Assembly: GCA_015056925.1 (NCBI GenBank) | Contig: SVFJ01000005.1 | Span: 1-64,000 of the forward strand | Direction: 5' to 3' | Source: Lachnospiraceae bacterium | GTDB lineage: Bacteria; Bacillota; Clostridia; Lachnospirales; Lachnospiraceae | DNA length: 64,000 nt | Shown here: positions 30,001 to 63,227 of the stretch, piece after piece | Layout: every line of letters starts with the position of its first letter | How positions within the stretch are numbered: the first letter of the stretch is position 1 | Translations under genes and position numbers: made by a program | The notes under the pieces: generated by a model | The model's database searches: none | What the model saw: only the letters and a program-made list of their open reading frames with translations | Told to the model about the DNA's origin: nothing

Positions 30001-30098
30001 CTTCTTCTCCTTTCTTTTGTTTTTTGTTATATTTATTATATAACAATAGGCACGCAAACATCAATCGAACGCATTATGAAAAAAATGTAAAATACATT

Positions 30099-30494: not shown

Positions 30495-30550
30495 AAGTCC
30501 TCCTGTTATACTATTTATATTGCAAAATAATATAAAGTTTCTCATAAATA

Positions 30551-40813: not shown

Positions 40814-40821
40814 ACTGCCTC

Positions 40822-41055: not shown

Positions 41056-41420
41056 TTTATTTCAAAGCACCTGCGCAATTCTTCGTGTATATCATTTGCT
41101 AATGCTCTGTAATCTCTTGTAATCACATTGAGAAGCTGTCTGCGTGATAAATCTGTATATTCCGTGTGATTCTCTTCTCTGTCAATTTCAATCCCTTCAA
41201 GGACCATCAATGTCAATCCGAATGTAACAGCTCCAATATCCGGTTCTTTAGGTAATCGCTTTATTTCCTCCCCAACAGTAACCTCTCTAAAAGGGACAAT
41301 CCTCTTCTCAAACTCTGCCACTGTTCCATATTCCTTCTGTATGGCTTCCAGAACATTCAGATTACACTTAACAGGAAGTTCTATGCTCTTTGCGAGCTTA
41401 ATCTTTGATAATTGAATCAT
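41049..41420 (-). CDS. Tail assembly chaperone (G-like)
   Basis: Position between major tail protein and TMP; ends at slippery heptamer. Confidence 0.75.
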   Translation of the reverse strand: MIQLSKIKLAKSIELPVKCNLNVLEAIQKEYGTVAEFEKRIVPFREVTVGEEIKRLPKEPDIGAVTFGLTLMVLEGIEIDREENHTEYTDLSRRQLLNVITRDYRALANDIHEELRRCFEIKK

Positions 41421-41472
41421 ATTACCTCCAACAAGGCAGTGGGTTACCCCACCGCCACTACTTAAGCAAATA

Positions 41473-42027
41473 CTATTCTGTAATATTCAGATAATCCTTA
41501 ATGAAGGCAATCGCTTCATCCTCAGTTTTGAACCACTGCTTCACTCTCCACTCTCCATCCTTATCTGATGAAGCTACACCGGTAAGTGATGGTGTCTTAA
41601 ATGTGATATTCTCACCCTTGGTCTCATAACTGTCAGCAGTATCCTTAAACTTAACCTTTGGTAAAACTGCTGCGATATACTTCTTTTCACCATCATCATC
41701 AATCTCGCTTGCGTAGAAACCATAGCCAACAAAATTAGCTGTATCTGAATCCTTGTATACCACCTTGCTAGTCGCTTCATCAACAGTATGGCCAAACATA
41801 ACGTTTGCAGCCTTTAAAGGTAACTGAGTAACCTGAAGCTTAACATTTGCAAATTTAAACTCTGAATGGTCGATAACAAGCTTATTGTCGCCGTATACCT
41901 TCGCTTCTCCATACTGTGGGTCAACATCTGTTCCCACTGCTGTTCCGCACTTAAATCCGTCTGAATATGTTCCTGTTTTTACATCCAACTTGGAAATGTA
42001 TGGATGACTTAATCCATAATGTGCCAT
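41473..42027 (-). CDS. Major tail protein
   Basis: phi13-type (AHYGLSHPYISKLDVKTGTYSDG). Confidence 0.85.
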   Translation of the reverse strand: MAHYGLSHPYISKLDVKTGTYSDGFKCGTAVGTDVDPQYGEAKVYGDNKLVIDHSEFKFANVKLQVTQLPLKAANVMFGHTVDEATSKVVYKDSDTANFVGYGFYASEIDDDGEKKYIAAVLPKVKFKDTADSYETKGENITFKTPSLTGVASSDKDGEWRVKQWFKTEDEAIAFIKDYLNITE

Positions 42028-42040
42028 TATAATATCCTCC

Positions 42041-42424
42041 TTAATGTTTATCTGTGTAATTCATCTTAAATACTGTGCACCGAGAACGCTTATTACTTGT
42101 AGCACTCTGCGTAACACTTTCATAAGTTGTTTCCAAGAATGAAAACTTGCTTGTAATCTGAAAGCCTCTGCTCTCAAAATACTCTCCTGTCCTGCGTTTC
42201 AACTCATGGTAGTTGAACTCCTTGGGTGTATGCATCCGAAGTTGTATATAAGCTGTATCGAACAAGGGCCTGTCATCACCAAATTGTGTCGGTGTTTCAT
42301 CCTCATAAGAAAATGTAAAGTAAATATCTGATTCATCATCCTCGTAAATATCCTCTGCAACAGGATAGCCTATATGCTCACTAAACTCTGTTACAAATAA
42401 TTCATTAAGATTCATCCCTTGCAC
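42041..42424 (-). CDS. Tail terminator/completion-like protein
   Basis: Gene order. Confidence 0.65.
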   Translation of the reverse strand: MQGMNLNELFVTEFSEHIGYPVAEDIYEDDESDIYFTFSYEDETPTQFGDDRPLFDTAYIQLRMHTPKEFNYHELKRRTGEYFESRGFQITSKFSFLETTYESVTQSATSNKRSRCTVFKMNYTDKH

Positions 42425-42887
42425 CTGTCTTTCTGTTGTATACTTCCTGCATCTTTGTCATGGATGCGCTCCTTGTCTGATTCACCAATCTTTGTAAGAA
42501 TGGCCGAGCTGGTTGCCTACCTGCAACACCATATTCAATCCATATCATCTTGAGTGAATTGGAAATCTTATATTTCCTCATCTTCTCTCCTTTTCCTTTT
42601 ACTGAAAATGAATTGATAGAGCTGTATCCGGTAGGTCTTACATGTACCATCCATGCACCATTTTTAGCCTTTTTCGGCTTGGTTGCTTTAATAGAATCAA
42701 TAAGTTCTCCTGATAACTCATGGTTATCCTGACGAAGTATGTCTTTCATATTGTTTTCAAGAATAGGCGCAGTCTCTTGCAGAGCTTCAAAACAGATATC
42801 ATCCGCATCTGTCTGTAATAGCTCACTTAAGAAATCTTCGGGAAAATCCATCTCAAATCCTGCCATCAGCTTGTACCTATCTTGCAA
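42405..42887 (-). CDS. HK97 gp10-like protein
   Basis: Gene order; RPFLQRLVNQ. Confidence 0.75.
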   Translation of the reverse strand: MQDRYKLMAGFEMDFPEDFLSELLQTDADDICFEALQETAPILENNMKDILRQDNHELSGELIDSIKATKPKKAKNGAWMVHVRPTGYSSINSFSVKGKGEKMRKYKISNSLKMIWIEYGVAGRQPARPFLQRLVNQTRSASMTKMQEVYNRKTGARDES

Positions 42888-43198
42888 TATAATTCGATAT
42901 ACTCATGCTTATCGTCTATGTCATTGATATCCTCAATGTCATATATCTTCCCAGCATATTTAACCTTCATCTTTGTGTTATACTCTGTCTCTGAGTATCT
43001 GATGAGAAAACGAATTGAATTAATGCTGATATCTGTATCTGCTACCTCTTTCTCCTTATCCTTGGATGAGCTTCTTTTCGTATACTTCGCCCAACATTTT
43101 CTAACAGATACCAATTCTCTTCCAAAGCCCTGCTTATCCGGCTTGGAATACTTCAATATCTCAATTCGCTTGTTCAGTTCTCCCGGATTAATATTCAT
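42866..43198 (-). CDS. Head-tail adaptor/head closure protein
   Basis: MNINPGELNKRIEILKY...; gene order. Confidence 0.8.
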   Translation of the reverse strand: MNINPGELNKRIEILKYSKPDKQGFGRELVSVRKCWAKYTKRSSSKDKEKEVADTDISINSIRFLIRYSETEYNTKMKVKYAGKIYDIEDINDIDDKHEYIELYCKIGTS

Positions 43199-43207
43199 AC
43201 ATGCCTC

Positions 43208-43516
43208 CTATACATAATTTGCACTATGCATGTTTAAAATGCTTGATACCGTCTGATTCGTGTAACTCTTGCCGACGGTAAATGAACGGTTGTCATGCAT
43301 ATCCTGGCAAAGTACAAGGACAGCAATCGGAAACTTGGCATAATCATCCAAGGTCTTTCCCTCAATACCTTCCTCGTACTTTGGAATATGCGTATAGTCA
43401 GCAACGTATTCTACCGCCGCATCCAGAATCATCTGCATTTGCGTCGGTTCATACTCATCCTCTTCCAGTTTAAGGAACTCAGCTACATAGGGGACCGTAA
43501 TCTCACTTACCTTCAT
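43208..43516 (-). CDS. Head-tail connector protein (gp6-like)
   Basis: LKLEEDEYEPTQMQMILDAAVEYVADYT. Confidence 0.8.
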   Translation of the reverse strand: MKVSEITVPYVAEFLKLEEDEYEPTQMQMILDAAVEYVADYTHIPKYEEGIEGKTLDDYAKFPIAVLVLCQDMHDNRSFTVGKSYTNQTVSSILNMHSANYV

Positions 43517-43541
43517 GCCTTACCTCCTTAAACCAACACCA

Positions 43542-44702
43542 CTATGATGCAGACTTCATATCAAGAGCAGCAATCATCTCTGCATTCTGCACCTTTGCAT
43601 CAAGTTCAACGAAACCAAGAACCTCAAGCAAATGTAAACGTGCCTTTGTCTCTCTTAATACCTCAATGTCGATATCCTCTGAAATCTTAACAGCAAGCCC
43701 CTTGTAATCTCCGTAGAAGATTGCTCTTGCACCTGCTGCCATCTTAGGCATTGCATCAGAAATGCGTACATCCTTGCCAAATAAGGTGTAACCCCATTTA
43801 GCTGTTGCATCCTTCTGTAACAGATAGTTACCCTGACCATCCTTAAGCTTACGAATATGCTTTCTGGTATCCTTATTCATAATCCAGTAAGCATTTGCCT
43901 GATATCTGTCTGGTACAGACTCCTGTAAATCAATAAGTTCATCTGCTGTGATAGCAGTTTCGGAAGCAGCTTCTACAATCTGTGTTACTCCACTTAACCC
44001 CTCAATCTTGCCAGATGTACCAATCAAAAGTTCATGCTCTAAGAATAAAGCAATTGCCTCTGCCATCTTACGAATAACATAGTTCACGATATCGAACTTA
44101 CTGTTATTAATAAGACTCTTAGAAATATCTGTGATAGCTCTCGCAAGATATTCCTTAAGTTCAATGCTCTTGAATTTACCTGATGTGCTGCTTCCGTCAA
44201 CACCTTCTGTTGCATAAGTCATAGTAATTGCACCTGATGATTCATCGTAGTATGGCAATGACAATGTACCTGCTACGGTATAATGCTCCGAATCTGCAAA
44301 GATAGGGCAAATCTCCTTAGTCTTCTCGATAATCTTATTGGCGATTGTAGTTGGAATAATTGCCCCATTTTCGCCCTTTGCCATTGTCACATCGGCTCTC
44401 TCTTCTACTACACCTCTGATAAAGCTCTCAAAAGCTCTCTCCTCTGCTTTCTCCTGCTCTTCCTTGGACTTATCGCCCTCATCAGAACCTGCATCTGTTC
44501 TGTCTTCCTCTTCAAGAAAACCTCTTGCTCTCTCTTCTGCCTCGATGGTTGCATCAATCGCCTTAATCTGCTTCTCGTAATCGCCGAACTTCTTAACCTC
44601 ATCTTCATTCATGGCTCTTTCTTCTGCCTCTGCCTGCTCTAACAGCTTCTTTGTCTCTGCCATCAGCTTTGCTCTCTGCTCTTTTAATTTCTTAATATGC
44701 AT
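43542..44702 (-). CDS. HK97-type major capsid protein
   Basis: N-terminal delta-domain-like coiled coil; AYWIMNKDTRKHIRKLKDGQGNYLLQ. Confidence 0.92.
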   Translation of the reverse strand: MHIKKLKEQRAKLMAETKKLLEQAEAEERAMNEDEVKKFGDYEKQIKAIDATIEAEERARGFLEEEDRTDAGSDEGDKSKEEQEKAEERAFESFIRGVVEERADVTMAKGENGAIIPTTIANKIIEKTKEICPIFADSEHYTVAGTLSLPYYDESSGAITMTYATEGVDGSSTSGKFKSIELKEYLARAITDISKSLINNSKFDIVNYVIRKMAEAIALFLEHELLIGTSGKIEGLSGVTQIVEAASETAITADELIDLQESVPDRYQANAYWIMNKDTRKHIRKLKDGQGNYLLQKDATAKWGYTLFGKDVRISDAMPKMAAGARAIFYGDYKGLAVKISEDIDIEVLRETKARLHLLEVLGFVELDAKVQNAEMIAALDMKSAS

Positions 44703-44740
44703 CTTTCTTACCTCCGTTTTTGTTTAATATAAAAAGCTGA

Positions 44741-45331
44741 CTAAATAGCCAGCTTCTTTAACCTGTTCTTATACTCCGCATTGTCATACGTCTTTTTCTG
44801 ATTGTCGATGATATCCATATCATCATCAAATGCTCTGCACTCTAATTCTAATACTTCATCATCAGCTCTACACTCTACACTTGTAGCCGAGTATACCGGA
44901 GTCTTATTAACCACCAGCGTAATATGGTCCAAATCAAATCCCCGTACATGACGTAACGGTAACTGGTCGGCTCTCTCCTCGATTTTGTCCTGAATCCTAC
45001 GCATACCAAAGGACCAACCTTTGATTTTACCCTGCTTTGCCTCTGCAATCGTGTTCGCATCTGTAATTTCAGCCTTGGCATATAGACCGATGCGGTCTTC
45101 TTTTAGACTCAGAGTATTCGCTCTGGTCTCTGCAAGGACACAGCCTGCATCATGGTCCTTTGTCATCGGCACATTCTCAGCTCTTGCAAGAGCGTCTGCA
45201 AATGCTCGCTCTTCAATCACTTCGATTACCCTCTGACCTTTGGCCGTAATCACAGGACGGCTAGGCTTGCCCGTCACATTAACGTACCCGGTTATCTCTA
45301 AGACACCGTCAGCTCTCACTTCCACTTTCAT
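44741..45331 (-). CDS. HK97-type prohead protease
   Basis: ERAFADALARAENVPMTKDHDAGCVLAET...KGWSFGM. Confidence 0.88.
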   Translation of the reverse strand: MKVEVRADGVLEITGYVNVTGKPSRPVITAKGQRVIEVIEERAFADALARAENVPMTKDHDAGCVLAETRANTLSLKEDRIGLYAKAEITDANTIAEAKQGKIKGWSFGMRRIQDKIEERADQLPLRHVRGFDLDHITLVVNKTPVYSATSVECRADDEVLELECRAFDDDMDIIDNQKKTYDNAEYKNRLKKLAI

Positions 45332-46574
45332 CAGCTATCTTCTCTCCTTTCTTGAAATTTTTCATATTGGTTGTCGCATTGGTATTTGGTGTGTAGATTT
45401 CTCCTGTTTTGATGTTATACAAGACACTATCCAAACCAAGGCGAACAAATTCAAAGCCTAACGGCTCTAAATCCTCTTTTTCTCTAATTTCATCGACTAA
45501 AAGAAAATTGTTCTTATAGGCGATTTCATATGCCTCATAACGTTCTTTGATATTTCCACGTTTGAGTTCCTTTACATCAAAATAAAAATGATAACCCTGC
45601 TCTTTCTCAAGCTCAGTCAATAAATCTCTGTCTAAGCTCGCCTCAATATCTGCAATCAGTGGCATGATACAGAAATTAATAAAATTATCAATATCCTTCT
45701 GTGTCGCATTGCCTCTGATGATTGGATTTGCAATGGAGAAGAGCATTGTTAACTCTGCCGAGTTGGTCTCTTTATTCTCATTGAGCTGTAGCTCTGTCGG
45801 TGTACTAGATAACTCGTGGAACTCAGCACCCCTAGAGAATACTGCCACCCTGTCTCCATTTGGACTAAACAAAGATATCAGTCTGCTTTTTATCTTGTTT
45901 AGTGTTGCTTCGTCCTTAACACTGTCTGGGCAAAGATATCCTTTCTTTCCTCCACCAGTCTCTACAAGACTTTTTTCAAAACGCAACTCATTGTAGGCAA
46001 CTGCTGCCATCGTTCCACTCTGCTCCTGCATCGGTGTACTCTTGTGACCATCTCTGGTGTTTCTTAGCAATTTGATAAATTCATACTTGCCGTATCTTTT
46101 CCCATTTACACAGATGTCATAATCTTTGAATATTGGGTCTGTGTTGGTTAAGAAGCTAATATTCTCGCACTTCACATGATGAATGCTTACCACATCTTCA
46201 TAACGCTTATTGATATAAGCAAAGGCACCTTTGCCGAGGTAATAATCTTCCAGCATGGCTCTCCAAAACTGTGGAGCTGTCATAGTATCGCCTGTGTCAT
46301 AATTTAGCAAGTAGCACCTTCTGTCACCCTTAATCTGCTTAACCTCTCCCTTCTCTGTTTTAAACAGATTAACTGGCAAAGCAGATATAACATCTGATAT
46401 CAGCTTAATAGATGCACCAACACTTGGAATCTCTAAAGCCTGCTCTCTTGTCAAAGACGTATTTTCTCCGAGAAATCTTCTCAATTCATCGGATACTGCA
46501 ACACCACTGGTGTCCGAATCGGACACCGAAGACGTATCTGCTCTTTTCTCGATAGTCCAACCGAATAAATTCAT
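45309..46574 (-). CDS. HK97-type portal protein
   Basis: QFWRAMLEDYYLGKGAFAYI; gene order. Confidence 0.9.
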   Translation of the reverse strand: MNLFGWTIEKRADTSSVSDSDTSGVAVSDELRRFLGENTSLTREQALEIPSVGASIKLISDVISALPVNLFKTEKGEVKQIKGDRRCYLLNYDTGDTMTAPQFWRAMLEDYYLGKGAFAYINKRYEDVVSIHHVKCENISFLTNTDPIFKDYDICVNGKRYGKYEFIKLLRNTRDGHKSTPMQEQSGTMAAVAYNELRFEKSLVETGGGKKGYLCPDSVKDEATLNKIKSRLISLFSPNGDRVAVFSRGAEFHELSSTPTELQLNENKETNSAELTMLFSIANPIIRGNATQKDIDNFINFCIMPLIADIEASLDRDLLTELEKEQGYHFYFDVKELKRGNIKERYEAYEIAYKNNFLLVDEIREKEDLEPLGFEFVRLGLDSVLYNIKTGEIYTPNTNATTNMKNFKKGEKIADESGSES

Positions 46575-46584
46575 TTTCTGCCTC

Positions 46585-48270
46585 CTAACATACTATAAAA
46601 TCACTTCCGTATAACATCTCCTGCTGCGCAAGATAGATAGCATTAATCAATGACACAACCATATCCACCTTACCGTTTGAACGTTTTTTATTGACATAGC
46701 GATTCATGTTCGTGTCATAAGTACACCTTGCGTTCTCAAAGTTGATTTCCAAAAGCAAATTCTCATCGTATAAGAATTTCTTGCCTAATATAGCCTCTTT
46801 TAGAAGCTTTGTAGGCATATGTAAGGTATCTGAATGCTGTCGGACAATGACGCACTCATATCCCTCTCTTTCAAGTGCCTGCATCGTTGAAATTGCATTG
46901 TATTTATCAAATGCCAACTGGACTATCTCCACACCATACTTTGTTTGCAAATCCATGATGAAGTTCTGCACATCCAGATAGTCAACCAAGGCTCCCTCGC
47001 TTGCAAAGCACACTCCCTGACGTATCAGTTTCGCATAATCAACACTTTCTTTCTGCCTCTTGGCGGCAAGTTTATCCTCCGGCAACCATCCCCAAACCTT
47101 GGCATAAATCACATCATCTTCCACTGTTACCATTGCAACAGATGTGTTATCCTCGGTCATGGATAAGTCGCATCCTATATATACTTTCCTGCCTCTCCAC
47201 CAGTCAATATCTTCCTTGCGTCTGCATTCCTTGACGCTCGTAATCTCAATATAGGCTTCTGCTCCCATGCCCTTGAACTTGATGTTGCAATGCTTACAAA
47301 GGAAATTTTCCCTCTTATTCGGGTAAAGGATTGCATTCGCTCTCTTTTCTTTGATTTTCTCAAAGACTTTTTCATTACTGACTGCTACAGGATTTGCCTG
47401 ATACAAAATCGTGTCATCATCCTGCCACGAATCCTCATGTACAAGCTCCTCATCCGGCTCATAAAGTAATGCAAAATATCTGTCTGACAAGCCCTCATTC
47501 AATCCGTCTAAGGTCTTCTTGGCTCTGTCAATTTCATCAATCATGACGTTATCATCATTCGGGTACTGTGTACTGATGATGATACCTAAAGCATTAGCCA
47601 ATGTTATCTGTGATGAGCGCATCGCCTCAACGGGATAATCGTCAAGTGCACCTGCCTCATCAGCAAGGAACGCATTTGCAAGTTTTCCGTCCATACCGTC
47701 TTTCGAGTATGCAAGCGGTGTATACTCCGAATCAGTCAGATTACATCGAATCTGACTGCGAAGCAGCTTAAAATGTTTGCTGACATATGGACTCGACTTA
47801 ATAATCTTTCTGATAGCTCCTTTCAGCTCAGAAGACAAAGCCAAATCAGGAGCAACCGAGAAGAATCTCGAAAACTGTGGTTCTGTCAGCATCAAGAGTA
47901 TAAAAATAACGCCACAGTTGAAGGTCTTGAAATTCTTTCGAGCAATCTCCAACAATGCCGTCTCGTAATATCTTATGTCTTTATTCTCATTATTTCTCAA
48001 TTTGGTACAGAAAGTGGCTGTAATCAATAGACAAGCATACGGTTCCAAGCCTTCGTTCATCGGGCACCCTAAATCCGGGTGTACCATCAAAGACAATATG
48101 GACTCGATACGCTCATAAGCCTTCTCATCGACATAAGCCTCTGCATTCTTTCCATCCACGATATCAACCCAGCGCTTAGCCTGCTTCTTGACATATTTGC
48201 CAACATAGAAATTATCGTCAGTAATACACCACTTTGCGTACTGGTAAGCAACCGAATCTTTAACTGCCAT
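46585..48270 (-). CDS. Terminase large subunit
   Basis: ARKNFKTFNCGVIFI, FLADEAGALDDYPVEAM, YIGCDLSMTEDNTS. Confidence 0.92.
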   Translation of the reverse strand: MAVKDSVAYQYAKWCITDDNFYVGKYVKKQAKRWVDIVDGKNAEAYVDEKAYERIESILSLMVHPDLGCPMNEGLEPYACLLITATFCTKLRNNENKDIRYYETALLEIARKNFKTFNCGVIFILLMLTEPQFSRFFSVAPDLALSSELKGAIRKIIKSSPYVSKHFKLLRSQIRCNLTDSEYTPLAYSKDGMDGKLANAFLADEAGALDDYPVEAMRSSQITLANALGIIISTQYPNDDNVMIDEIDRAKKTLDGLNEGLSDRYFALLYEPDEELVHEDSWQDDDTILYQANPVAVSNEKVFEKIKEKRANAILYPNKRENFLCKHCNIKFKGMGAEAYIEITSVKECRRKEDIDWWRGRKVYIGCDLSMTEDNTSVAMVTVEDDVIYAKVWGWLPEDKLAAKRQKESVDYAKLIRQGVCFASEGALVDYLDVQNFIMDLQTKYGVEIVQLAFDKYNAISTMQALEREGYECVIVRQHSDTLHMPTKLLKEAILGKKFLYDENLLLEINFENARCTYDTNMNRYVNKKRSNGKVDMVVSLINAIYLAQQEMLYGSDFIVC

Positions 48271-48853
48271 TTCCTAATATCTTTTTCAATGGGTCCTCTT
48301 CGTTTTCATTCGTCTTTTTCGGAATACTGCGCAAACCACCACTAATCGTCATGAGGTTCTCTTTCTCAATATCCATCAGCATTTTTCTCTTTGCCTGTAG
48401 CTGTTTATCAATGGCTGTGACCTGACTCTGAAAGCTACCAAGCATCTTGTAATACTCCGCATAGGACATTCCGGATTCAATAAGCTGACTTTCCTTTTCC
48501 TCGAACTTCTGCGCACGCTGGTAAAAGCTCTCCCTCTTCTGCTCAAACTCCTCACATTCCGCAACTAACATACAGTATCTGTTGATGACCCCCTCAAAGA
48601 GCGCATCATTCTTATTAATTTTCTTAAGCAGCTTATTTACTTTCATAAACTCCTTATGCGCTCTGTCATTCTCTCTGACTTCCTTGCGCTCCTTAAGGGA
48701 TACTCCTGTCAACAGTTCCTCTTCGGCCTTTTTTCGCTGTTCCATTTCAGCTTTGGTTCGATGTGATTTTCCTTCTGTGGAAATTACCGAAAACGGCTTT
48801 GATGGTCTACCCATTTTGTCTCTCCTTTCTCCCCTTTCAGAAAAATTTCTCAT
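48260..48853 (-). CDS. Terminase small subunit (P27-like)
   Basis: MGRPSKPFSVISTEGKSHRTKAEMEQRKKAEEELLTG; gene order. Confidence 0.85.
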   Translation of the reverse strand: MRNFSERGERRDKMGRPSKPFSVISTEGKSHRTKAEMEQRKKAEEELLTGVSLKERKEVRENDRAHKEFMKVNKLLKKINKNDALFEGVINRYCMLVAECEEFEQKRESFYQRAQKFEEKESQLIESGMSYAEYYKMLGSFQSQVTAIDKQLQAKRKMLMDIEKENLMTISGGLRSIPKKTNENEEDPLKKILGNGS

Positions 48854-49961: not shown

Positions 49962-50978
49962 CTACACGATTTCCACATAACTGTGGAATATCTGTTCAAC
50001 ATATTGGTCTGACTTAAATGTGTAATGTCTACCTGTTACATTCCTTGGAGCATGTCCCAAATATTCTCCTGCTGCCGATTCGCTTCCCCCTCTGCGAACA
50101 ATGGCTGTTGCTGTTGTCTTTCTAAAGATATGCGGATATACTCTTTTATCTACTCCAGAACGTTTTGCAATCATCTTTACTACATAGTATATTCCATCTG
50201 CCGATAAAGCTCTGTGGATATTCCTTGCACGTGTAAATAGTGCCTCATCTGACGATAACGAAACTTCTCGTTCTTCCAGATACTCTTTGATATATTGCAG
50301 TGCAACCTTATCCAAGAATACTGGTCTGAACCGATTTGACTTATGACCGTATATGATTATCTTTCCTGTTCCAAAATCTATATCGCTTATTTTAACACTA
50401 GGTATCTCTCCCACTCTCATTGCTGTCGAACGTAAAAATTCAAGGATTGCTCTGTCTCTCTTGCTGGTGCACCCTCTCTTTATCACTTCAACATCTGTCG
50501 CTTCCAAATGTTCGATAGGCTTTACAACTTGTGCAAAAGGTTCTACTCCGTCGCATGGGTTCTCTGTTACCAATTTGACTTTGCGCATCCATGTGAAGAA
50601 TGCCGATAAGTTCCTTCTGTAATTGTTCAGTGATGTGTTCGAATTTCCCAACTGTTTCTTCTGGAACAGATAGTACTCTACATCACTTTCACTAATATTA
50701 TTCAATGGCTTATTTATATACTCTACAAACTCTTTAAGTGTTCCAAGATAAGCTTTTACCGTTTCGTGGCTCAGCTTATTGGCTTTCCTCGCCATGAATA
50801 ATTCGATAATGTATTTGTTGGTATCATCAATTGCCGCTGGAAGGGTTTCCATCTCTGACATCTCGATATCCTGTGCTGCCTTAACAATGACAGCCTCCAG
50901 TATTGCCATTGTCGTTACATCTAAATACATTCTCATTCCAACCATAATGTCATTCTTTAACTTCGTCTTTGCATTCAT
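49962..50978 (-). CDS. Tyrosine recombinase
   Basis: RSTAMRVGEI, HIFRKTTATAI, YLGHAPRNVTGRHY. Confidence 0.93.
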   Translation of the reverse strand: MNAKTKLKNDIMVGMRMYLDVTTMAILEAVIVKAAQDIEMSEMETLPAAIDDTNKYIIELFMARKANKLSHETVKAYLGTLKEFVEYINKPLNNISESDVEYYLFQKKQLGNSNTSLNNYRRNLSAFFTWMRKVKLVTENPCDGVEPFAQVVKPIEHLEATDVEVIKRGCTSKRDRAILEFLRSTAMRVGEIPSVKISDIDFGTGKIIIYGHKSNRFRPVFLDKVALQYIKEYLEEREVSLSSDEALFTRARNIHRALSADGIYYVVKMIAKRSGVDKRVYPHIFRKTTATAIVRRGGSESAAGEYLGHAPRNVTGRHYTFKSDQYVEQIFHSYVEIV

Positions 50979-52370: not shown

Positions 52371-52880
52371 TTAGTCATGTCTGTACCTTTCTGTGCTTGC
52401 ATGGAAGAAAATCTTAATATCTCCCAGACCTGCACTTGATAATTTTTCTATAATCCTTGCTAATTCTTTCTGTTCCCATTTTACTGGTCCATTATCGCTG
52501 TTTTGAAAATGTACCGCTCCACCTCTGCATAGCAGAAATCTCTTTACTGCCTCTGCTGTTGTACTTCCGAGCATTCGCCATCGTCCTGACGCAATATAGA
52601 ATATCTGATTAGGTGTCAACTGAAATCCTAACGTCTTTTCTATCTTGGCAAGCTCTTCCTCAGTAGCCATTCCGCTTAGTACAAGTTCTCTCACTGCCTT
52701 CTCTCTTGGCATAATAAAGTTTGCTGTTGCGTGAAGTTTGTTCATCGGACAAGCCTCGCACTTTTCCTCTAATTTCTCTGCATCATCTTCATGACAGTAC
52801 AGTTCCGGCCATGTGCAGTACGAATCACACATCTCTTCTCTAATCTTCTCTAATTCCTGCTCGGTCATTGATACCTCCAT
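52371..52880 (-). CDS. Hypothetical Cys-rich prophage protein
   Basis: CDSYCTWPELYCHEDDAEKLEEKCEACPMNKL. Confidence 0.6.
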   Translation of the reverse strand: MEVSMTEQELEKIREEMCDSYCTWPELYCHEDDAEKLEEKCEACPMNKLHATANFIMPREKAVRELVLSGMATEEELAKIEKTLGFQLTPNQIFYIASGRWRMLGSTTAEAVKRFLLCRGGAVHFQNSDNGPVKWEQKELARIIEKLSSAGLGDIKIFFHASTERYRHD

Positions 52881-54501
52881 AGATGTTCTTCAATCCTAAG
52901 ATGCAATATTTATCTTCAATTCCTGTATGCTCCTGCATCACATATCCTACAGTTGCCGTTAATGCCTTTCCGCTTTCCTGTCCTCTAACAAGTTCCTTGA
53001 GGATTAGCTTGTCATCTTTTCTGTAATCCTGCTGCATCACCAGAAGAAAATTGCGCTCCTTGTATTCCAACTCAGCAAACTGGCGAATAGAAAGAGTAAT
53101 AACCTTCGGCTCATTGCTCCGCTCTTGCTCCACAGGTGGAAGCTTCTCGAATTTCTTCTCTGCAAGCTCATGCATCTTCTTTCTGGTCTCTCTATCAATC
53201 TTGTCCTGCTCTTCTGAATATCTTTGTTCTTCTGTCTTTTCTGCCTCAGCCTTATTCTTATACTGGTCGCACTCGGATACTGCTGCCGACTTCTTATCGC
53301 AATCTGCATAGTGCAAACACGAATAGCAAGGAACATCTTTGTAGACTGGTCTAGGTTCTTCTAGTGTCTGATTCTTTTCTGCGTCAAGCATTTCCTGATA
53401 CTCTTTCTCTAATCTGCTGTTCTCTACGTCAAACGTTGGCTTTCCATCCGCTCCGCAAAATACAGTTACATTTTCCTTTCTTTCCACCATCATCCATGAG
53501 CCATGCACATTAATCGAAACTGCTTGTCTAATCTTGCTGTCCTCATATCTTGTAGCAAGAAATTCATGGACTATCTTGTGTCGATACCAGCCATAACCAT
53601 TGTCACTATTCAATACTCCATCTACAAAGTGCTTAATATCTTGTTCGGGTTCTTTCTGTTCTTCCGTCTCTTTTTCTTCCTGTTCTTCAATTGTCATCTG
53701 TCCCGGTATCGGCTTTGAAGCTTTCTCCTGCATCTTTAACATTTCTACGCTTTGAAGATTCATGTATCCCAAATCGTTATAGATGCCCTCTGCTTTCTCT
53801 TGCCACTCTGGTGACAAGGTTGCAAGCTCATAAGCAATTGAGATACTGATATTCTTTGCTTGAAAAGCTGTCATGAATACTTCGCTCAAGCTGTTATGTA
53901 TCTTCTCGTATCTGGCAACCTGTGTGGCCGATATGTTAAGGCTCTTTGCCATGAAGTCTCGAAGCTTCATGTCCTCATCTGTCTGAATCTCAAGTAATTC
54001 TTTCAGCATCTTCTGAGTCTGCTTATCCAACTTGCGATTCTCCAAAATCTCGTTGAATATGGATTTCAGCTCTACAACTTCCATCATTCTTTCCCAGTCA
54101 GACTTATCTCTAAAACGATTGGCTACAATCAATGCAAGCTTCTGTAATGTCTGACTCTTCTTAGGCTTTATGATTGCCGGAACATATCTGTACTGTTTCA
54201 TGCCTTTCTGCTCAACCAGATAGATACATGCTGTTCGTCTTCTGTGCCCTGCAACAATCTCATACATATCCTCTTCTTCGTCTGATTCATTCAGTAGCAA
54301 AGGTTGTAATATTCCCGCCATTGGAATTGTCGCAACCAAATCATCTATCTCTTTGACACTGTAATGATTATCCTTTGATGGAATCATCTTGTAGATATCA
54401 ATCAACTCTACTTCTCCGTCTATCTTAATCTCATCTGTACTCTGCATATCGTTTACCTTACTTCTCTCGTTTAATATATCCTTCAAATCAAATTTCCCCA
54501 T
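52840..54501 (-). CDS. parB: ParB-like partition protein
   Basis: IDIYKMIPSKDNHYSVKEIDDLVATIPMAGILQPLLL...YEIVAGHRRRTA; downstream of parA. Confidence 0.88.
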   Translation of the reverse strand: MGKFDLKDILNERSKVNDMQSTDEIKIDGEVELIDIYKMIPSKDNHYSVKEIDDLVATIPMAGILQPLLLNESDEEEDMYEIVAGHRRRTACIYLVEQKGMKQYRYVPAIIKPKKSQTLQKLALIVANRFRDKSDWERMMEVVELKSIFNEILENRKLDKQTQKMLKELLEIQTDEDMKLRDFMAKSLNISATQVARYEKIHNSLSEVFMTAFQAKNISISIAYELATLSPEWQEKAEGIYNDLGYMNLQSVEMLKMQEKASKPIPGQMTIEEQEEKETEEQKEPEQDIKHFVDGVLNSDNGYGWYRHKIVHEFLATRYEDSKIRQAVSINVHGSWMMVERKENVTVFCGADGKPTFDVENSRLEKEYQEMLDAEKNQTLEEPRPVYKDVPCYSCLHYADCDKKSAAVSECDQYKNKAEAEKTEEQRYSEEQDKIDRETRKKMHELAEKKFEKLPPVEQERSNEPKVITLSIRQFAELEYKERNFLLVMQQDYRKDDKLILKELVRGQESGKALTATVGYVMQEHTGIEDKYCILGLKNIYGGINDRAGIRED

Positions 54502-55295
54502 CGTGCAATCCCCCTATCTTGCAGTGTCCGATTCGGACACTGCAACATCAAATATTCTTCAACCAGTGCCTTATAATCCGCAGATGCTTTGCATCTCTTG
54601 GAATATGTCATAAGCGGCTCTCTTGCAAATGTACTCTCTTTGACCTTCGGTGTCTTATGAATTACCGTGTCGAGAACCGGATAACCAAGGCTCTTGATGT
54701 ACTCGATTCCATCTGTATCGTTTGCTCTATCAAAATGTGTGACGAAGCAACCAAGAAAATTAAGATTTTCGTTAAGGTCCTCTTTGGTGTTATCTATCTG
54801 TTCCTTGAGTTCTGCCAATCCCTCAATAGAATAATCATCAATGATAACCGGCACTAGCACATCATCTGATGCAACCAAGGCGTTGATTGTCGAGATATTG
54901 ATATCGGGTGCATTGTCGATGATTACATAATCGTAATCATCTCTTATCTGCTCAAAGGCTTTTGCAAATCTTGTCTGCTGTGGTCGCACCTGGTCTAGCA
55001 TGACCTGTAGGTTTGCACTAAGTAAATTCATGTTGGCGGTGATGATATCCAGATTATCGTAGTCTGTATGCTGTATCAGACTTCTCATGTTTACCCTGCG
55101 CTCTGTCATCAGCTCCGCTGTACCATTGCTGTCATAACTGTGCCTGTTGAAGTGCTTGCTGGCATTACCCTGCTTGTCGTTATCAATCAGCAGTACTCTC
55201 TTGTTATGCCCTGCTGCCAACTGGTAAGACATATTAATGCTTGAAATGCTCTTGCCAACTCCACCCTTCATAGCGATTATTGATAATACTCTCAT
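54483..55295 (-). CDS. parA: ParA-like partition ATPase
   Basis: AMKGGVGKSISSINMSYQLA, VIIDNAPDIN. Confidence 0.93.
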   Translation of the reverse strand: MRVLSIIAMKGGVGKSISSINMSYQLAAGHNKRVLLIDNDKQGNASKHFNRHSYDSNGTAELMTERRVNMRSLIQHTDYDNLDIITANMNLLSANLQVMLDQVRPQQTRFAKAFEQIRDDYDYVIIDNAPDINISTINALVASDDVLVPVIIDDYSIEGLAELKEQIDNTKEDLNENLNFLGCFVTHFDRANDTDGIEYIKSLGYPVLDTVIHKTPKVKESTFAREPLMTYSKRCKASADYKALVEEYLMLQCPNRTLQDRGIARWGNLI

Positions 55296-55311
55296 TTCCT
55301 ACTCCTCCTCG

Positions 55312-56265
55312 TTAATTTGCTAATAACTGCTCTTCCAACTGTTCCCATTCCCTGTCACTGTACTTTGTCTGCGAAAAGCAACTGAATGCATTCCGCTTTG
55401 GCGGTGACTTGGATATCTCATGCCCGGCAACAATATTGTTAAGGCATGTGCCTACATAGGCGCTTACGTTTGCAATCTCTCCCGAATGCTCCTCTACATT
55501 CCTGCACACTGACAGAAACATATTCTCCGTAATCGGTAGCTTGCGATTGTTGTCCTTAACCAATTCCTCTAACGCAATCCTTGCAATGGTCGGATACTCC
55601 TTGCTTACCCTCTGGTATCCAACCCGAGCTTTTATATCATCGTCATCATCCGTTCCCTCATCCTGTGAAGGGGGTTTAGGGGATGATGATATAATCTCTG
55701 TAGTAATCTCTGTAGTAATCTCTGTATTTGTATGACGATTTTGCGACACACCTATGACGTTTTTTTGACACAGGGTTGGCGGTTTTTCGTCAGACCTATG
55801 ACGTTTTTTCGTCATAGGGGTATTCACTTCTCCACCATGCGTTATTTCATGTAATCTTTGTGGTATCAATTCTATGAAAAGCACGTTATTGCACTTCACA
55901 CCGCTTGGTGTCTCTATCGTTCGGAAAATTCTTCGTATCACTCCGAGCTTTTCTAAACGAGCCATTGCGTCCTTAACGCTTCGCTTGCTTTCTCCAAATT
56001 GTTCTGCAAGCTGTTCATAATTTCTCTGTAGCAGGTCAGCTGAGAATTTCTTTTTCATTCCAATCACTTGCCCGGTTACTTCATCCCTTACCTCTACAGG
56101 TCGATACCAGTACACAATATCAGCAAGAAGAACAATGCCTAGCAAATCGGGTTTGCCTGTCTCCTTCAAAATATTTTTGTACCAGATTTGTGGGATTACA
56201 TTTCCAGTCAATTGGATAGATGCCATTGCATCTACAGTACTGCTGCCCGATGTATATTCGGTCAT
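55312..56265 (-). CDS. Replication-associated winged-helix protein
   Basis: GESKRSVKDAMARLEKLGVIRRIFR; gene order. Confidence 0.65.
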   Translation of the reverse strand: MTEYTSGSSTVDAMASIQLTGNVIPQIWYKNILKETGKPDLLGIVLLADIVYWYRPVEVRDEVTGQVIGMKKKFSADLLQRNYEQLAEQFGESKRSVKDAMARLEKLGVIRRIFRTIETPSGVKCNNVLFIELIPQRLHEITHGGEVNTPMTKKRHRSDEKPPTLCQKNVIGVSQNRHTNTEITTEITTEIISSSPKPPSQDEGTDDDDDIKARVGYQRVSKEYPTIARIALEELVKDNNRKLPITENMFLSVCRNVEEHSGEIANVSAYVGTCLNNIVAGHEISKSPPKRNAFSCFSQTKYSDREWEQLEEQLLAN

Positions 56266-56370
56266 GCACTCCCCCCTCTTCTTTGATTATTGAATAATGT
56301 TGAAAATAGACTTATGTACGTCCTTCACTATATAGCCTATTTCTTCATAGCACATTGTTATGTAATCCTG

Positions 56371-56426
56371 TATAATCTCCTTACAGGGTGTCGTTACCAC
56401 CCCAGTACCAATGAAAGGAGATTATA
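56371..56426 (+). promoter_or_regulatory. SD-sequestering leader hairpin 1
   Basis: TATAATCTCCTT / AAGGAGATTATA perfect 12-bp stem with nested GGGTG/CACCC. Confidence 0.7.
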
Positions 56427-56430
56427 CATA

Positions 56431-56574
56431 ATGGGTACATGTCCTTTTTCTAATCCACCAAAGCTATGCAATAATGGTTGTGCTTTGATGATTAATGGCG
56501 AATGTGCCTTCACTGTTATTGCGCAGAATTTAGCTTGTCAGTCAGTGAAGGATGGAAAGAAAGACCAAAAATAA
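56431..56574 (+). CDS. Small Cys-rich protein (47 aa)
   Basis: MGTCPFSNPPKLCNNGCALMINGECAFTVIAQNLACQSVKDGKKDQK; AAAGGAG upstream. Confidence 0.65.
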   Translation: MGTCPFSNPPKLCNNGCALMINGECAFTVIAQNLACQSVKDGKKDQK

Positions 56575-56698
56575 AATGGTTATTTTGCATCGCAAGCGAT
56601 ATCAATTCCAATTCTGTTGGGCTGATGTCGCTTTTCTTTATCGCTTTAGTAGCTCTCTCATTCAATGCCTCAGTAAATTCTTTATATGCCTGATACAT
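56516..56698 (-). CDS. Small hypothetical protein
   Basis: 60 aa ORF MYQAYKEFTEALNERATKAIKKSDISPTELELISLAMQ. Confidence 0.5.
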   Translation of the reverse strand: MYQAYKEFTEALNERATKAIKKSDISPTELELISLAMQNNHFIFGLSFHPSLTDKLNSAQ

Positions 56699-56827
56699 TC
56701 GGACACCTCCTTCTATCCGGCAGAAAGGGTCCTGCTCCCCTTCTGCCCCTTAACTTTATAATTTCCTTTTGCCTTCCGGGGCGTAGACAGGAAGGCTTCA
56801 CCATGCTTTGTGATATATAAATTCCTT

Positions 56828-57181
56828 CTAGGAACAAAAGGACTGTAGCTGTTCCTGCTTATACTCTCTAAGCAGCTCTACTATCTTCTCAATCTCTGCC
56901 TGCTCTTTGTATGGCACTTGGCAGAACACATCGTACTTCACCCACACACACACGATTTCTTTCGTGCCGAGCATATAATCAAATACCAGATACACACCAT
57001 GCGCATTCATGCGGTCTCTGACGCTGTCATACCCTCGTCTACGGTAATATACTCTGTTCTCCATATCCGGCAGAGACAGCGCAAAATCAAAATCTACCCT
57101 CACGGAGCAGAAGAACTTTCCTGCACCGAAGTCAAACTCCTTGTAGTCCTTGCTGTATTCAGTTATGCTGTCAATCTTCAT
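56828..57181 (-). CDS. Hypothetical protein paired with rep
   Basis: 117 aa ORF directly downstream of rep. Confidence 0.65.
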   Translation of the reverse strand: MKIDSITEYSKDYKEFDFGAGKFFCSVRVDFDFALSLPDMENRVYYRRRGYDSVRDRMNAHGVYLVFDYMLGTKEIVCVWVKYDVFCQVPYKEQAEIEKIVELLREYKQEQLQSFCS

Positions 57182-57190
57182 TGGTTATCC

Positions 57191-58078
57191 TCACGTTATC
57201 AGATGCATGGATAGATATATGCTCCACCGCCCGAGGTACTCATTGAACTCATAACGGCATCTGTCTAATGCATATCCGTCATATATTCGCTCGAATATCT
57301 TTCGCACATTCTCGCAATCCGGCGGCATACTTACAATCTTCTCCACATCTCTTCGACTGTACTTGTAATCATTAGGCGGCATACTCCAAGGTCTTACCAG
57401 TCCCTTACTCTGCATCCATCGTCTCTTACCCTTGACCTTCTTCTCCGAGAACAAATCCTCTAAGGTCAACTGACCTTCCGTCAACTGCTCCTGCCTCATG
57501 TCCTTGGTTATGTAGCGGAACAATCCCTCGATACCCTCATCGGTAAATTGGAGATTGTCACAGTTCACGGTTCCAAGTCTTTCACGTTTGGCTTGTCCTG
57601 CCCTCTTGCGGTCACACCAAAGAGCTTCCATGAGCTGTCGGTCTAATCCACCACTTATCAGCATATGATGATGTATACGGCCATTCTTCTTACCGTACTC
57701 ATGTATGCAGATATAAGCAGCCTTCGGCAGTCCACGTTTCAACCGTTCCCGGTTCACTCTGTCTACAAAATTCTTAACTCGTCTTGTGGCTTCCTCTTCC
57801 GACCGAGGTCGGAACTTGTTACTGTAAGTCAAATCAATGCGGTAATCTTCATCTGTGAAGTTGCTCTTAATGAGCTGATACAGATATCTGATTGCCCTTT
57901 TGGTATTAAGACTCTTCTGCTTTGGAGCTGAGACATTCCTCTTTCTTCTCCTGCTCCTCTTATGCCTACCATTGTCGATGTTGGGTACAATGTCTACTTC
58001 GATGTAGTCACATTTCCTTCCGTACCTTCCACATCTGATAACCTTCTCTCTTACGCTTCCGTATCCCTTCATACTCAC
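57191..58078 (-). CDS. HUH-type replication initiator (rolling-circle Rep-like)
   Basis: NGRIHHHMLISGG HUH-like motif, RYITKDM. Confidence 0.75.
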   Translation of the reverse strand: MSMKGYGSVREKVIRCGRYGRKCDYIEVDIVPNIDNGRHKRSRRRKRNVSAPKQKSLNTKRAIRYLYQLIKSNFTDEDYRIDLTYSNKFRPRSEEEATRRVKNFVDRVNRERLKRGLPKAAYICIHEYGKKNGRIHHHMLISGGLDRQLMEALWCDRKRAGQAKRERLGTVNCDNLQFTDEGIEGLFRYITKDMRQEQLTEGQLTLEDLFSEKKVKGKRRWMQSKGLVRPWSMPPNDYKYSRRDVEKIVSMPPDCENVRKIFERIYDGYALDRCRYEFNEYLGRWSIYLSMHLIT

Positions 58079-59733: not shown

Positions 59734-59864
59734 TTTTTTCGTTTCGTTGAATACATAATAATATTCTTCGACACGCTTTGTCAAGGGTTTTTGTATTCTT
59801 TGACACACTTTTTGTTGCTTTTTTTGTTTTTTGCTGATATTCTTATAGTGAAGGAGGTGTGTAC

Positions 59865-60299
59865 ATGACTGAAAATGAACGCATAAAGGAAATTCGACAG
59901 CACTTTAAAATGACTGGCGAAGAATTCGGCACAAGACTTGGCATTACTAGAGGCGCTTTATCAAATATTGAAAACGGAAATCGTAGTGTAACTCCACAGA
60001 TACGCAAAGCCATTTGTCGTGAATTTGGAGTTGATTATATATGGTTAACCCAAGGACATGGCGAAATGTTCTTTGATGATGATGACGAAGATGATGGTTT
60101 TGGCCTTATGGTCGACGAAATTCTTGCAGATGAACCTGAATCAGTAAGAAATGCTTTTAAGATGTTCAAGAAAAAGTATACTCGTGAAGATTGGAAGATG
60201 CTCTTTAGGCTCATAGCCAGAAGTGCAACATATCTCCAAGAGCTTCAGGAAGAAGCAGAAAAGGAAGTGTCCGAATCGGACACCGAAGAAGAGGACTGA
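59865..60299 (+). CDS. XRE-family repressor
   Basis: MTGEEFGTRLGITRGALSNIENGNRSVTPQIRKAICREFGVDYIWL. Confidence 0.9.
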   Translation: MTENERIKEIRQHFKMTGEEFGTRLGITRGALSNIENGNRSVTPQIRKAICREFGVDYIWLTQGHGEMFFDDDDEDDGFGLMVDEILADEPESVRNAFKMFKKKYTREDWKMLFRLIARSATYLQELQEEAEKEVSESDTEEED

Positions 60300-60399
60300 T
60301 TTTCAGTCCTTTTTTATTTTATACCTATAGCTCCTTTATTTTTATCAGATTTTGTCATATTATGTTAATTAGGTATTTTAATTAATGGAGGAATTTAAT

Positions 60400-61398
60400 A
60401 TGGCAATTTCTATTTCTATTAGTCCTGATGGGACTGTTTCTTTTGATGTCAATCTTTTACCACCCAAAACCGTTCGAGAACAGAAAGGTGCAAGCCTCAT
60501 AGAGTTCCCTGATTCTTACTGCCTCATTGATATTGAGACCACTGGACTCTCTCCTGCTTACGACAGCATTATCGAGGTTGCAGCTTTAAAAATCGAAAAC
60601 GATACTATTATTTCTTCTTTTTCTTCTTTAGTGAAACCTTTTGAGTCAAGCAGTAACAACTATGTAGACGAATACATTACTGAATTAACAGGCATCACTA
60701 ATGAGATGCTCGCTACTGCTCCAGACACCAAGACTGTGCTTTCTGATTTCATCAAGTTCGTTGGAAGTGATATTCTTATTGGTCATAATGTTCACTTCGA
60801 TATTAACTTTTTGTACGATAACTGCTTGGATACTTGCTCTCACTATCTCTCAAATGACTTTGTAGATACTATGAGATTATTCAGACGTGCACATAGAGAA
60901 CTAGAGCACCATAGACTGTGTGACTTTACCGAATACTACAAAATTAAACAAGATACAGCACACAGAGCTTGGGCTGACTGTGAAAGTACATTCAAAGCAT
61001 TCCTTGCATTGAAGAATGATATCGAAGAAAAACATATTTCATTGGAGAACTTCAAGAAGAAATATCATGCTTCTGTCTCAGCAAAAGACATCAATGCAAC
61101 TCAGTTACTTTCTGAGGAAACACCTTTTTATGGAAAGGTATGTGTATTCACTGGAACACTAGAAAAGATGCTCCGTAAAGATGCAATGCAACTAATTGCT
61201 AACTTAGGTGGTATCAATGCTGATGGTGTAACCGCCAAGACTAATTTCTTGATACTGGGCAACAATGACTACTGTACTCAAATCAAAGATGGCAAAAGCA
61301 ACAAACAGAAGAAAGCAGAATCTCTCATCCTGAAAGGAAAGGATATTCAAATCATTCCAGAAAATGTATTTTATGATATGGTCAATGATTTTCTGTAA
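60400..61398 (+). CDS. DEDD (DnaQ-like) exonuclease fused to BRCT domain
   Basis: LIDIETTGLSPAYDSIIEVAAL, LIGHNVHFDINFL; C-terminal VCVFTGTLEKMLRKDAMQLIANLGG. Confidence 0.88.
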   Translation: MAISISISPDGTVSFDVNLLPPKTVREQKGASLIEFPDSYCLIDIETTGLSPAYDSIIEVAALKIENDTIISSFSSLVKPFESSSNNYVDEYITELTGITNEMLATAPDTKTVLSDFIKFVGSDILIGHNVHFDINFLYDNCLDTCSHYLSNDFVDTMRLFRRAHRELEHHRLCDFTEYYKIKQDTAHRAWADCESTFKAFLALKNDIEEKHISLENFKKKYHASVSAKDINATQLLSEETPFYGKVCVFTGTLEKMLRKDAMQLIANLGGINADGVTAKTNFLILGNNDYCTQIKDGKSNKQKKAESLILKGKDIQIIPENVFYDMVNDFL

Positions 61399-62300: not shown

Positions 62301-62645
62301 TTACATTGACAATTTATACACCGCCAACTGGTTAAGGCTCACACCTTCCCTCTCTGCTTCAATTGCCAGTCTCTGATGTAATGACTTTGGCAATCTCACA
62401 ACAAACTTTCCACTATAATCATCAGCAGTATTAGGCATTGGAATTGGTAAATTATTCTCTAACTTTACTTCTATATATCCTTCCAATGCTTCATTTAAAC
62501 ACTCATACAACTCTTCTAACGTATCTCCTGTACTTTGGCAACCATCAAGCTCTAAAATTCTTCCATAGAAATAATGTCCTGATTCATCATTCATTTCCTG
62601 TATTATTCTAGTATATGGTAACTCTAAGTAATCTTGCACTTCCAT
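62301..62645 (-). CDS. hicB: HicB-like antitoxin
   Basis: GRILELDGCQSTGDTLEELYECLNEALEGYI...KFVVRLPKSLHQRLAIEAEREGVSLNQL; start approximate. Confidence 0.85.
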   Translation of the reverse strand: MEVQDYLELPYTRIIQEMNDESGHYFYGRILELDGCQSTGDTLEELYECLNEALEGYIEVKLENNLPIPMPNTADDYSGKFVVRLPKSLHQRLAIEAEREGVSLNQLAVYKLSM

Positions 62646-62924
62646 GCGTTTCATCATCCAACCTCCATATCTATACTGACTGACATTGCTGTCTCTCTAC
62701 ACTCAACCTTCGTACATAATTCAAAACTAATTTTTTTAAATTCTTTCCTCTGTAAATTCAACTAATTCCTGTTGATTTTCAAAACTCTTTCCTTTACAAT
62801 TCAAGCTGTTTTCTCTTGAATTACAATTCTTCTTTATAAAATATAAAGAAGTCTTCACCTCCTCACACTAAATATAGTGTGGTTAAAATGCTGCATGATT
62901 TATAGTTATTCAGAATAGGAGTTT

Positions 62925-63227
62925 TTATTCTCCTATTCTGCGTAAGATATCTTTTACATATGCCTTTTTCAACGGATTCTCTTGCTTGATTGTTATTACA
63001 TCTCCAGTCGTTTTATTTAAGTACTGTCTGTGACTTCCTTTTTGTCTTACAGGCTCATATCCGTAGGCAATTAATACTTTTTCGGCTTCCTCTGGCCTGA
63101 TACCATGTGGTTGCCTTTTCATCTTATCGATGTTTTTTTCAACGTCCGCCAAGTTCTCACCTCCCTTGTACATAGTATCATATATAATACTATTTGTCAA
63201 CACTTTTGATACTATATTCAGTATCAC
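62925..63227 (-). CDS. hicA: HicA-like toxin
   Basis: EEAEKVLIAYGYEPVRQKGSHRQYLN; true start likely internal. Confidence 0.8.
   Translation of the reverse strand: MILNIVSKVLTNSIIYDTMYKGGENLADVEKNIDKMKRQPHGIRPEEAEKVLIAYGYEPVRQKGSHRQYLNKTTGDVITIKQENPLKKAYVKDILRRIGE

What the first reader, a model, noticed from the sequence alone, without database searches (positions are those of the whole stretch)
52840..58078. Integrated siphoprophage carrying ParAB plus an HUH Rep: phage-plasmid hybrid
A full HK97-type morphogenesis module is joined to ParA/ParB, a winged-helix replication protein and an HUH-type Rep. Partition and plasmid-type replication genes make little sense for a stable chromosomal prophage, so the element may alternate between integrated (cotJC) and plasmid states.
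Basis: partly seen in the sequence, partly recalled or inferred. Interest (0 to 1): 0.7.

Follow-up and report, generated by a model that had tools for sequence, protein, structure and literature searches.

The report
Prophage with scattered partition sites, splitting cotJC
A 38-kb bacterial virus sits inside a spore-coat gene (cotJC) of a gut-type Lachnospiraceae bacterium and carries a complete plasmid-style partition system, whose DNA target sites, scattered through the viral genome, turn up in many other viruses of Clostridia.

Summary
An intact HK97-type siphoprophage carries ParA, ParB (fused to DUF3850), an O-like initiator with iterons and an HUH Rep with intact motifs. The whole element is about 38.2 kb (28,041 to 66,252 of the contig) and its right end lies outside the window. 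A large serine recombinase sits beside attR. Attachment sites split cotJC after codon 31, and joining the flanks restores a 197-aa CotJC in frame. HUH Reps of this family also occur in other temperate phages, so that gene does not prove plasmid life, and no circular form was found. ParAB is very probably a real partition system, however. Four copies of a 17-bp palindrome, GTGTCCGAWTCGGACAC, occur in the 3.5-Mb genome, all inside the prophage. The same palindrome retrieves phages with ParB relatives of 27-36% identity (34 of 46 records), and symmetric variants lie at the par loci of ParB relatives picked by protein alone. It is therefore very probably parS. Most likely reading: an integrating temperate phage whose ParABS serves the excised circle. 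cotJC is also an insertion hotspot: four positions in one genus.

The parts
27541..28044 (-). 3' part of cotJC (codon 32 onward), cut off from its start by the prophage
   Evidence: Mn-catalase Pfam hit; the 5' part (31 codons) is at contig 66250-66345, followed by cotJB and cotJA; joining restores 197 aa in frame
28041..28064 (-). attL: core GGTC shared with attR plus phage arm ATATGTTAGTGACATT, which is repeated inverted at attR (contig 66234-66255)
   Evidence: sequence comparison
28070..30545 (-). lysis genes: GH25 endolysin, holin, M15 peptidase
   Evidence: PHROGs and Pfam
34736..48853 (-). tail, tape measure, major tail protein, head closure, major head protein, protease, portal, terminase: HK97-type siphophage block
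   Evidence: PHROGs
35574..35590 (.). candidate parS 1 (GTGTCCGAATCGGACAC) inside a tail gene
46510..46526 (.). candidate parS 2 inside the portal gene
49962..50978 (-). second, Xer-like tyrosine recombinase; dimer resolution is one possible role (inferred)
   Evidence: Pfam Phage_integrase; NCBIfam XerA/XerC/XerD below cut-off
52840..54501 (-). parB: ParB_N CTPase domain, HTH domain, C-terminal DUF3850
   Evidence: Pfam; AlphaFold model confident for most of residues 31-262, best PDB matches Noc, ParB and KorB
54483..55295 (-). parA, deviant Walker A motif KGGVGKS
   Evidence: Pfam and PHROG; sequence
54519..54545 (.). candidate main parS: 27-bp perfect palindrome TTGCAGTGTCCGATTCGGACACTGCAA at the 3' end of parA, just before parB
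55312..56265 (-). O/DnaD-like winged-helix replication initiator
   Evidence: PHROGs
55733..55819 (.). four 22-bp iteron-like repeats inside the initiator gene: probable phage (theta) origin
   Evidence: a related prophage has 24-bp repeats inside its initiator gene
57191..58078 (-). HUH rolling-circle Rep; HHH motif (H136-138) and Y..K motif intact
   Evidence: Pfam PF23343, phrog_3584; alignment A2
59859..60299 (+). cI-like HTH repressor
   Evidence: PHROGs and Pfam
60267..60283 (.). candidate parS 4 inside the repressor gene
60385..61398 (+). DnaQ-like exonuclease with BRCT domain
   Evidence: Pfam
62301..63227 (-). HicA/HicB toxin-antitoxin pair (maintenance module)
   Evidence: Pfam

Best explanation
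This is an integrating temperate siphophage of a Lachnospiraceae host with two separate maintenance systems. Shown by sequence: (1) a large serine recombinase and att sites place the phage in cotJC after codon 31, and recombination between attL and attR would release a 38.2-kb circle and restore cotJC in frame; (2) the phage carries parA, parB and four dispersed palindromic sites with the hallmarks of parS; (3) it carries two initiators, an O-like protein with iterons and an HUH Rep. Inferred: as a circle (after infection before integration, after induction, or after excision during sporulation) the DNA replicates from the iteron origin. ParB loads at the four scattered sites and spreads as a CTP clamp, and ParA on the nucleoid positions the circles so that no daughter cell loses the phage. 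The HUH Rep probably drives rolling-circle (late or lytic) replication. The circular stage is thus at least a transient plasmid-like stage; whether it is a long-lived plasmid is open. Excision timed to the mother cell of sporulating cells, as for skin and SPbeta, is expected from the insertion site but not shown.
For: Genes intact and identified. Palindrome: 4 copies in the prophage, 0.02 expected in the window, none elsewhere in 3.5 Mb even with one mismatch. A DNA-only scan of viral contigs with it stopped at 120 stretches, against 0, 4 and 20 for three altered palindromes. Of those 120 loci, 31 have a tblastn match to the window's ParB and 35 to its ParA (the window's own record is among them). 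34 of 46 palindrome-bearing records of 20 kb or more hold this ParB family, with up to 7 sites per record; 0 of 4 control records do. 16 of 36 sites in loci with parB lie within 300 bp inside to 150 bp upstream of the parB frame start. Reverse test: among 39 whole genomes of the same family the site occurs in 3, all with this ParB, and 9 of the 10 sites are on the ParB contig. Par loci chosen by ParB homology alone show symmetric variants such as GTGTCAGAATCTGACAC and GTGTCCGAAACGGACAC. A related cotJC prophage (ParA 65%, ParB 41%, HUH 37%, recombinase 67%) has five copies, only the par one clearly at the matching place. ParB folds like Noc, ParB and KorB. attL, attR, recombinase and in-frame cotJC.
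Against: No circular form or attP junction was found. The IMG/VR copy is the same integrated contig. HUH Rep and O-like initiators are ordinary phage replication genes, so they do not by themselves show plasmid replication. ParB-DNA binding is inferred from co-occurrence only. No excision (directionality) factor was identified.
Confidence: 0.65

Rival explanations
1. True phage-plasmid: the element is mainly a low-copy plasmid that replicates stably through the HUH Rep or O initiator and only occasionally integrates.
For: ParABS, HicAB toxin-antitoxin, a Xer-like recombinase that could resolve dimers, and two replication initiators.
Against: Only the integrated form is in the data. Serine recombinase and att sites are intact, and relatives are found integrated in the same cotJC codon in other genomes. 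No attP in viral contigs. ParB relatives in plasmids are few and distant.
Confidence: 0.2
2. The palindromes are operators or stoperators of a phage repressor, or a regulatory ParB target, and the ParAB genes regulate transcription rather than partition DNA.
For: Scattered repressor sites exist in L5-type mycobacteriophages (own knowledge). ParB-like KorB is a transcriptional regulator and a fold match. One site is in the repressor gene.
Against: All four sites lie inside coding frames, not at promoters. Sites cluster at the parA-parB junction across phages. Site variants change symmetrically at the par loci of different ParB relatives. A linked parA argues for partition.
Confidence: 0.12
3. 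ParB-DUF3850 with ParA has an RNA-related or anti-defence role in prophages, as suggested for this fusion class (PMC12704722), and the palindrome is incidental.
For: The published survey found that only the DUF3850 fusion is consistently next to parA and proposed RNA-related functions.
Against: The window ParB has the fusion and four parS-like sites; phage ParB relatives without a DUF3850 match share the same site. The fold is ParB CTPase plus HTH.
Confidence: 0.08
4. Decaying or ordinary prophage: par and rep are leftovers without function.
For: Only one integrated copy was seen.
Against: All frames are open; the 17-bp sites are kept exactly while their positions move between related phages.
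Confidence: 0.05

Closest known systems
Cluster A parABS mycobacteriophages (RedRock, Miko; PMC7157519)
   Same: Temperate siphophages with parA, parB and more than one parS locus
   Different: In that group (about 20% of cluster A) parABS replaces the integration cassette and RedRock's parS loci are clusters of 8-bp direct repeats. Here recombinase and parABS coexist and the candidate parS is a single 17-bp palindrome scattered through the genome
N15 / PY54 / phiKO2 prophages (own knowledge)
   Same: Partition sites dispersed over a phage genome
   Different: Linear plasmid prophages of Enterobacteria with no chromosomal integration; site sequences differ
ParB-CTPase-DUF3850 fusions beside parA in prophages (PMC12704722)
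   Same: Window ParB has this architecture with parA next to it; one such phage fusion was shown to bind CTP
   Different: The passages on this fusion that I read give no DNA site and suggest an RNA-related role; here a cognate palindrome is proposed
Flavonifractor phage Cormatin (ON453905.1)
   Same: Phage of a gut bacterium with ParA, a ParB relative and GTGTCCGATTCGGACAC in the 5' part of parB
   Different: Its other two candidate sites are GTGTCCAAGTTGGACAC; not annotated as partition sites
skin (sigK), SPbeta (spsM), vfbin, gin, yin intervening elements
   Same: Recombinase-bearing element splitting a spore gene; exact join restores the frame
   Different: Gene here is cotJC; none of the four papers checked mentions it; excision in sporulation untested here
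C. difficile phi027
   Same: Integrated next to a CotJC homologue; excises and is seen circular in cells (PMC11222575)
   Different: Abuts rather than splits the gene as described; different phage
Temperate phages with an HUH Rep of this family (Latilactobacillus TMW phages, Faecalibacterium FP_Toutatis)
   Same: Related Rep, 30-38% identical
   Different: I know of no description of them as phage-plasmids on that ground (own knowledge)

Membership tests
Phage-plasmid | Phage structural and packaging genes | tested here: met
Phage-plasmid | Plasmid-type partition and replication genes | tested here: met
   ParABS met; Rep genes present but not specific to plasmids
Phage-plasmid | Exists as an extrachromosomal replicon | not testable with these tools
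   Only integrated form seen; attP not found in viral contigs; no reads available
ParABS partition system | ParA ATPase with deviant Walker A | tested here: met
   KGGVGKS, AAA_31 E=2.6e-44
ParABS partition system | ParB with CTPase and HTH domains | tested here: met
   Pfam, profile search and fold match to Noc/ParB/KorB
ParABS partition system | Cis palindromic parS near parAB | tested here: met
   27-bp palindrome at the parA 3' end plus three 17-bp copies; identified by co-occurrence, binding not shown
ParABS partition system | ParB binds parS and stabilises DNA | not testable with these tools
   needs bench work
Sporulation-gene intervening element | Interrupts a sporulation gene | tested here: met
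   cotJC split at codon 31, cotJA and cotJB upstream
Sporulation-gene intervening element | Own site-specific recombinase at one end; exact join restores the frame | tested here: met
   LSR at contig 64720-66186; joined gene 197 aa
Sporulation-gene intervening element | Excises in the mother cell during sporulation | not testable with these tools
   no expression or junction data
HUH replication initiators | HUH motif and catalytic tyrosine | tested here: met
   HHH at 136-138 invariant in 9 sequences; Y..K motif in 8 of 9

The most novel reading that the evidence does not exclude
A large, unrecognised class of integrating Clostridia phages shares one ParABS type whose ParB reads GTGTCCGAWTCGGACAC and symmetric variants, with sites scattered over the genome. 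This gives each phage a plasmid-like stage between integration events and makes unrelated phages in one cell compete for partition. It also explains why ParB-DUF3850 proteins sit beside parA.
Probability: 0.45. Interest if true: 0.75.

Novelty: new variant of a known kind. Interest (0 to 1): 0.6.

Why it matters
It offers a concrete, testable DNA target for a ParB class of gut prophages whose function is an open question, and shows chromosomal integration and a full partition system together in one phage, whereas in the best-studied phage group one mostly replaces the other. The site is a handle for finding such phages by DNA alone and for asking why integrating phages keep partition genes. 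It also adds cotJC, with at least four insertion positions in one genus, to the sporulation genes split by mobile elements.

Tried and rejected
The IMG/VR hit with 100% ParB identity looked like an independent copy but is the same contig trimmed at gene ends: rejected as evidence. The attP pattern scan gave nothing. One control palindrome, GTGACCGAWTCGGTCAC, turned out not to be a clean control: 4 of its 20 loci carry this ParB family, in L158 and L169 with the site at the parB start, in L168 with three copies beside parB, so it looks like a variant parS. 'HUH Rep means plasmid' was rejected because other temperate phages have it. 'Peptide motif, not DNA motif' (VS[DE]SDT is encoded at three of the four sites) was rejected because the par site is read in another frame, one site of the related prophage lies in no long open frame, and symmetric variants change the coded peptide. 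The literature scan for the palindrome gave only papers that look unrelated by title among the 20 of 40 shown; no paper was found that links cotJC with an intervening element. The genus-wide cotJC fragments include some that end at contig ends (G339, G341); those were not counted as insertions.
Full report
What is there. The window is bases 1-64,000 of a 69,936-base contig of a 3.5-Mb draft genome. The head, tail, terminase and lysis genes of an HK97-type siphophage lie to their left. The HUH Rep keeps the HHH motif at 136-138 and a Y..K motif. The initiator gene contains four 22-bp repeats at 55733-55819, an arrangement like the lambda origin inside gene O (the comparison is own knowledge). 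The host is placed in Lachnospiraceae by inference: a genome of the same genus is deposited as an uncultured Lachnospiraceae bacterium (L176; its contig of 50,578 bases matches the genus-mate G349).

Ends of the element. The cotJC piece at 27541-28044 lacks its start. The missing first 31 codons are at contig 66250-66345, directly after cotJB and cotJA in the direction of transcription. The two junctions share the core GGTC, and both phage arms are the same 16 bp, ATATGTTAGTGACATT, in inverted orientation, as expected for a serine-integrase attP. A 488-aa large serine recombinase (Resolvase and Recombinase domains) lies at contig 64720-66186, beside attR. Joining the two flanks gives a 197-aa CotJC in frame, and genus-mates have an uninterrupted 197-residue gene. 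The element is thus about 38.2 kb. IMG/VR's copy (28070-66186) is the identical contig and not independent.

Partition sites. A 17-bp palindrome, GTGTCCGAWTCGGACAC, occurs at 35574, 46510, 54524 and 60267. The window expectation is 0.02, and no other copy exists in the genome even with one mismatch. The copy at the end of parA extends to a 27-bp perfect palindrome. In a 38.2-kb circle the spacings are about 10.9, 8.0, 5.7 and 13.5 kb. All four lie in coding frames; three are read in one phase and the parA one in another.

Forward test. Using the window's own ParB as query, 31 of the 120 loci matched (most at 27-36% identity; one is the window's own record), and 35 matched its ParA. On full records of at least 20 kb, 34 of 46 hold the ParB family and 0 of 4 control records do; sites per record range from 1 to 7. 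Caveats: the profile was built mostly from proteins of these same loci, some records are near-duplicates, the window's own record is one of the 46, and the controls are few.

Reverse test. Starting from ParB relatives found by protein in genomes of the same family, the site (up to one mismatch) occurs in 3 of 39 genomes searched, all three with this ParB, and 9 of the 10 sites are on the ParB contig. Searching 20 ParB loci (the window's included) for any palindrome of the GTG(11)CAC type gave 7 perfect ones, where by my estimate about 0.07 are expected; they include the symmetric variants GTGTCAGAATCTGACAC and GTGTCCGAAACGGACAC. Phage Cormatin has the exact site in the 5' part of parB. Sixteen of 36 sites in loci with parB lie within 300 bp inside to 150 bp upstream of the parB frame start. 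A related prophage in the same cotJC codon (contig CAMBAN010000007.1; ParA 65%, ParB 41%, HUH 37%, recombinase 67% identical) has five copies, and only the one at the par locus clearly matches in position: the motif is kept while its places move. This is what a centromere should look like. Binding itself is not shown.

ParB. The model is confident for most of residues 31-262 (mean over the whole protein 65) and resembles Noc, ParB and KorB. The C-terminal DUF3850 fusion is a class that a 2025 survey singled out as the only ParB-fold fusion consistently beside parA, proposing an RNA-related role; one phage member bound CTP (PMC12704722). A cognate DNA site makes ordinary partition the simpler reading.

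Is it a phage-plasmid? HUH Reps of this family are shared with other temperate phages, so the gene does not prove plasmid life. ParABS, HicAB and a Xer-like recombinase fit a plasmid-like stage. In cluster A mycobacteriophages parABS is reported as a replacement of the integration cassette (PMC7157519), though a review says that some carry both (PMC11652158); here both are present, as in several relatives with recombinases. The best-supported view is an integrating phage whose partition system serves the circle. A stable plasmid state is possible and untested.

Site of insertion. Serine recombinases at least 47% identical to this one lie beside cotJC fragments in seven other loci, in L176 with the prophage inverted. 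In the genus of the host, cotJC is split at about residues 31, 62, 135 and 175, each with a serine recombinase in the insert; G330 carries two elements in one cotJC, and fragments suggest the same in G348 and G356. The papers read on sporulation-gene intervening elements do not mention cotJC, and I found no paper linking them; phi027 of C. difficile sits next to a CotJC homologue. Excision during sporulation is the expected mechanism by analogy with skin and SPbeta and remains to be tested.

Noticed in passing
contig 66250-66345 with window 27541-28044; L236-L244 (genomes G337, G330, G329, G364, G356, G348): cotJC is a hotspot: four distinct insertion positions (about residues 31, 62, 135, 175) in one genus, inserts of about 3 to 38 kb each with a serine recombinase; one gene copy holds two elements (G330) and fragments suggest the same in two more genomes.
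   Followed up: partly
L176 (CAMBAN010000007.1), L246, L253-L255: A related prophage in the same cotJC codon is inserted in the opposite orientation (recombinase next to the 3' part instead of the 5' part), so orientation is not fixed across this recombinase group.
   Followed up: partly
L184, L186, L188 just after the recombinase: Recombinases 43-46% identical to this one sit in a gene coding for a polysaccharide deacetylase-like protein (RPPYGDYND...), possibly also spore-related.
   Followed up: no
window 49962-50978: A second, Xer-like tyrosine recombinase in the middle of the prophage, in addition to the serine recombinase at the end; dimer resolution or DNA inversion are possible roles.
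   Followed up: no
L158, L168, L169: GTGACCGAWTCGGTCAC, meant as a control, sits at parB starts or in triplicate beside parB of related ParBs, so it looks like a variant parS.
   Followed up: partly
window 62301-63227: HicB/HicA toxin-antitoxin pair inside the prophage near attR.
   Followed up: no
L002 3839-4576 (contig 63839-64576, partly beyond the window): DUF3800 protein next to the recombinase inside the prophage.
   Followed up: no
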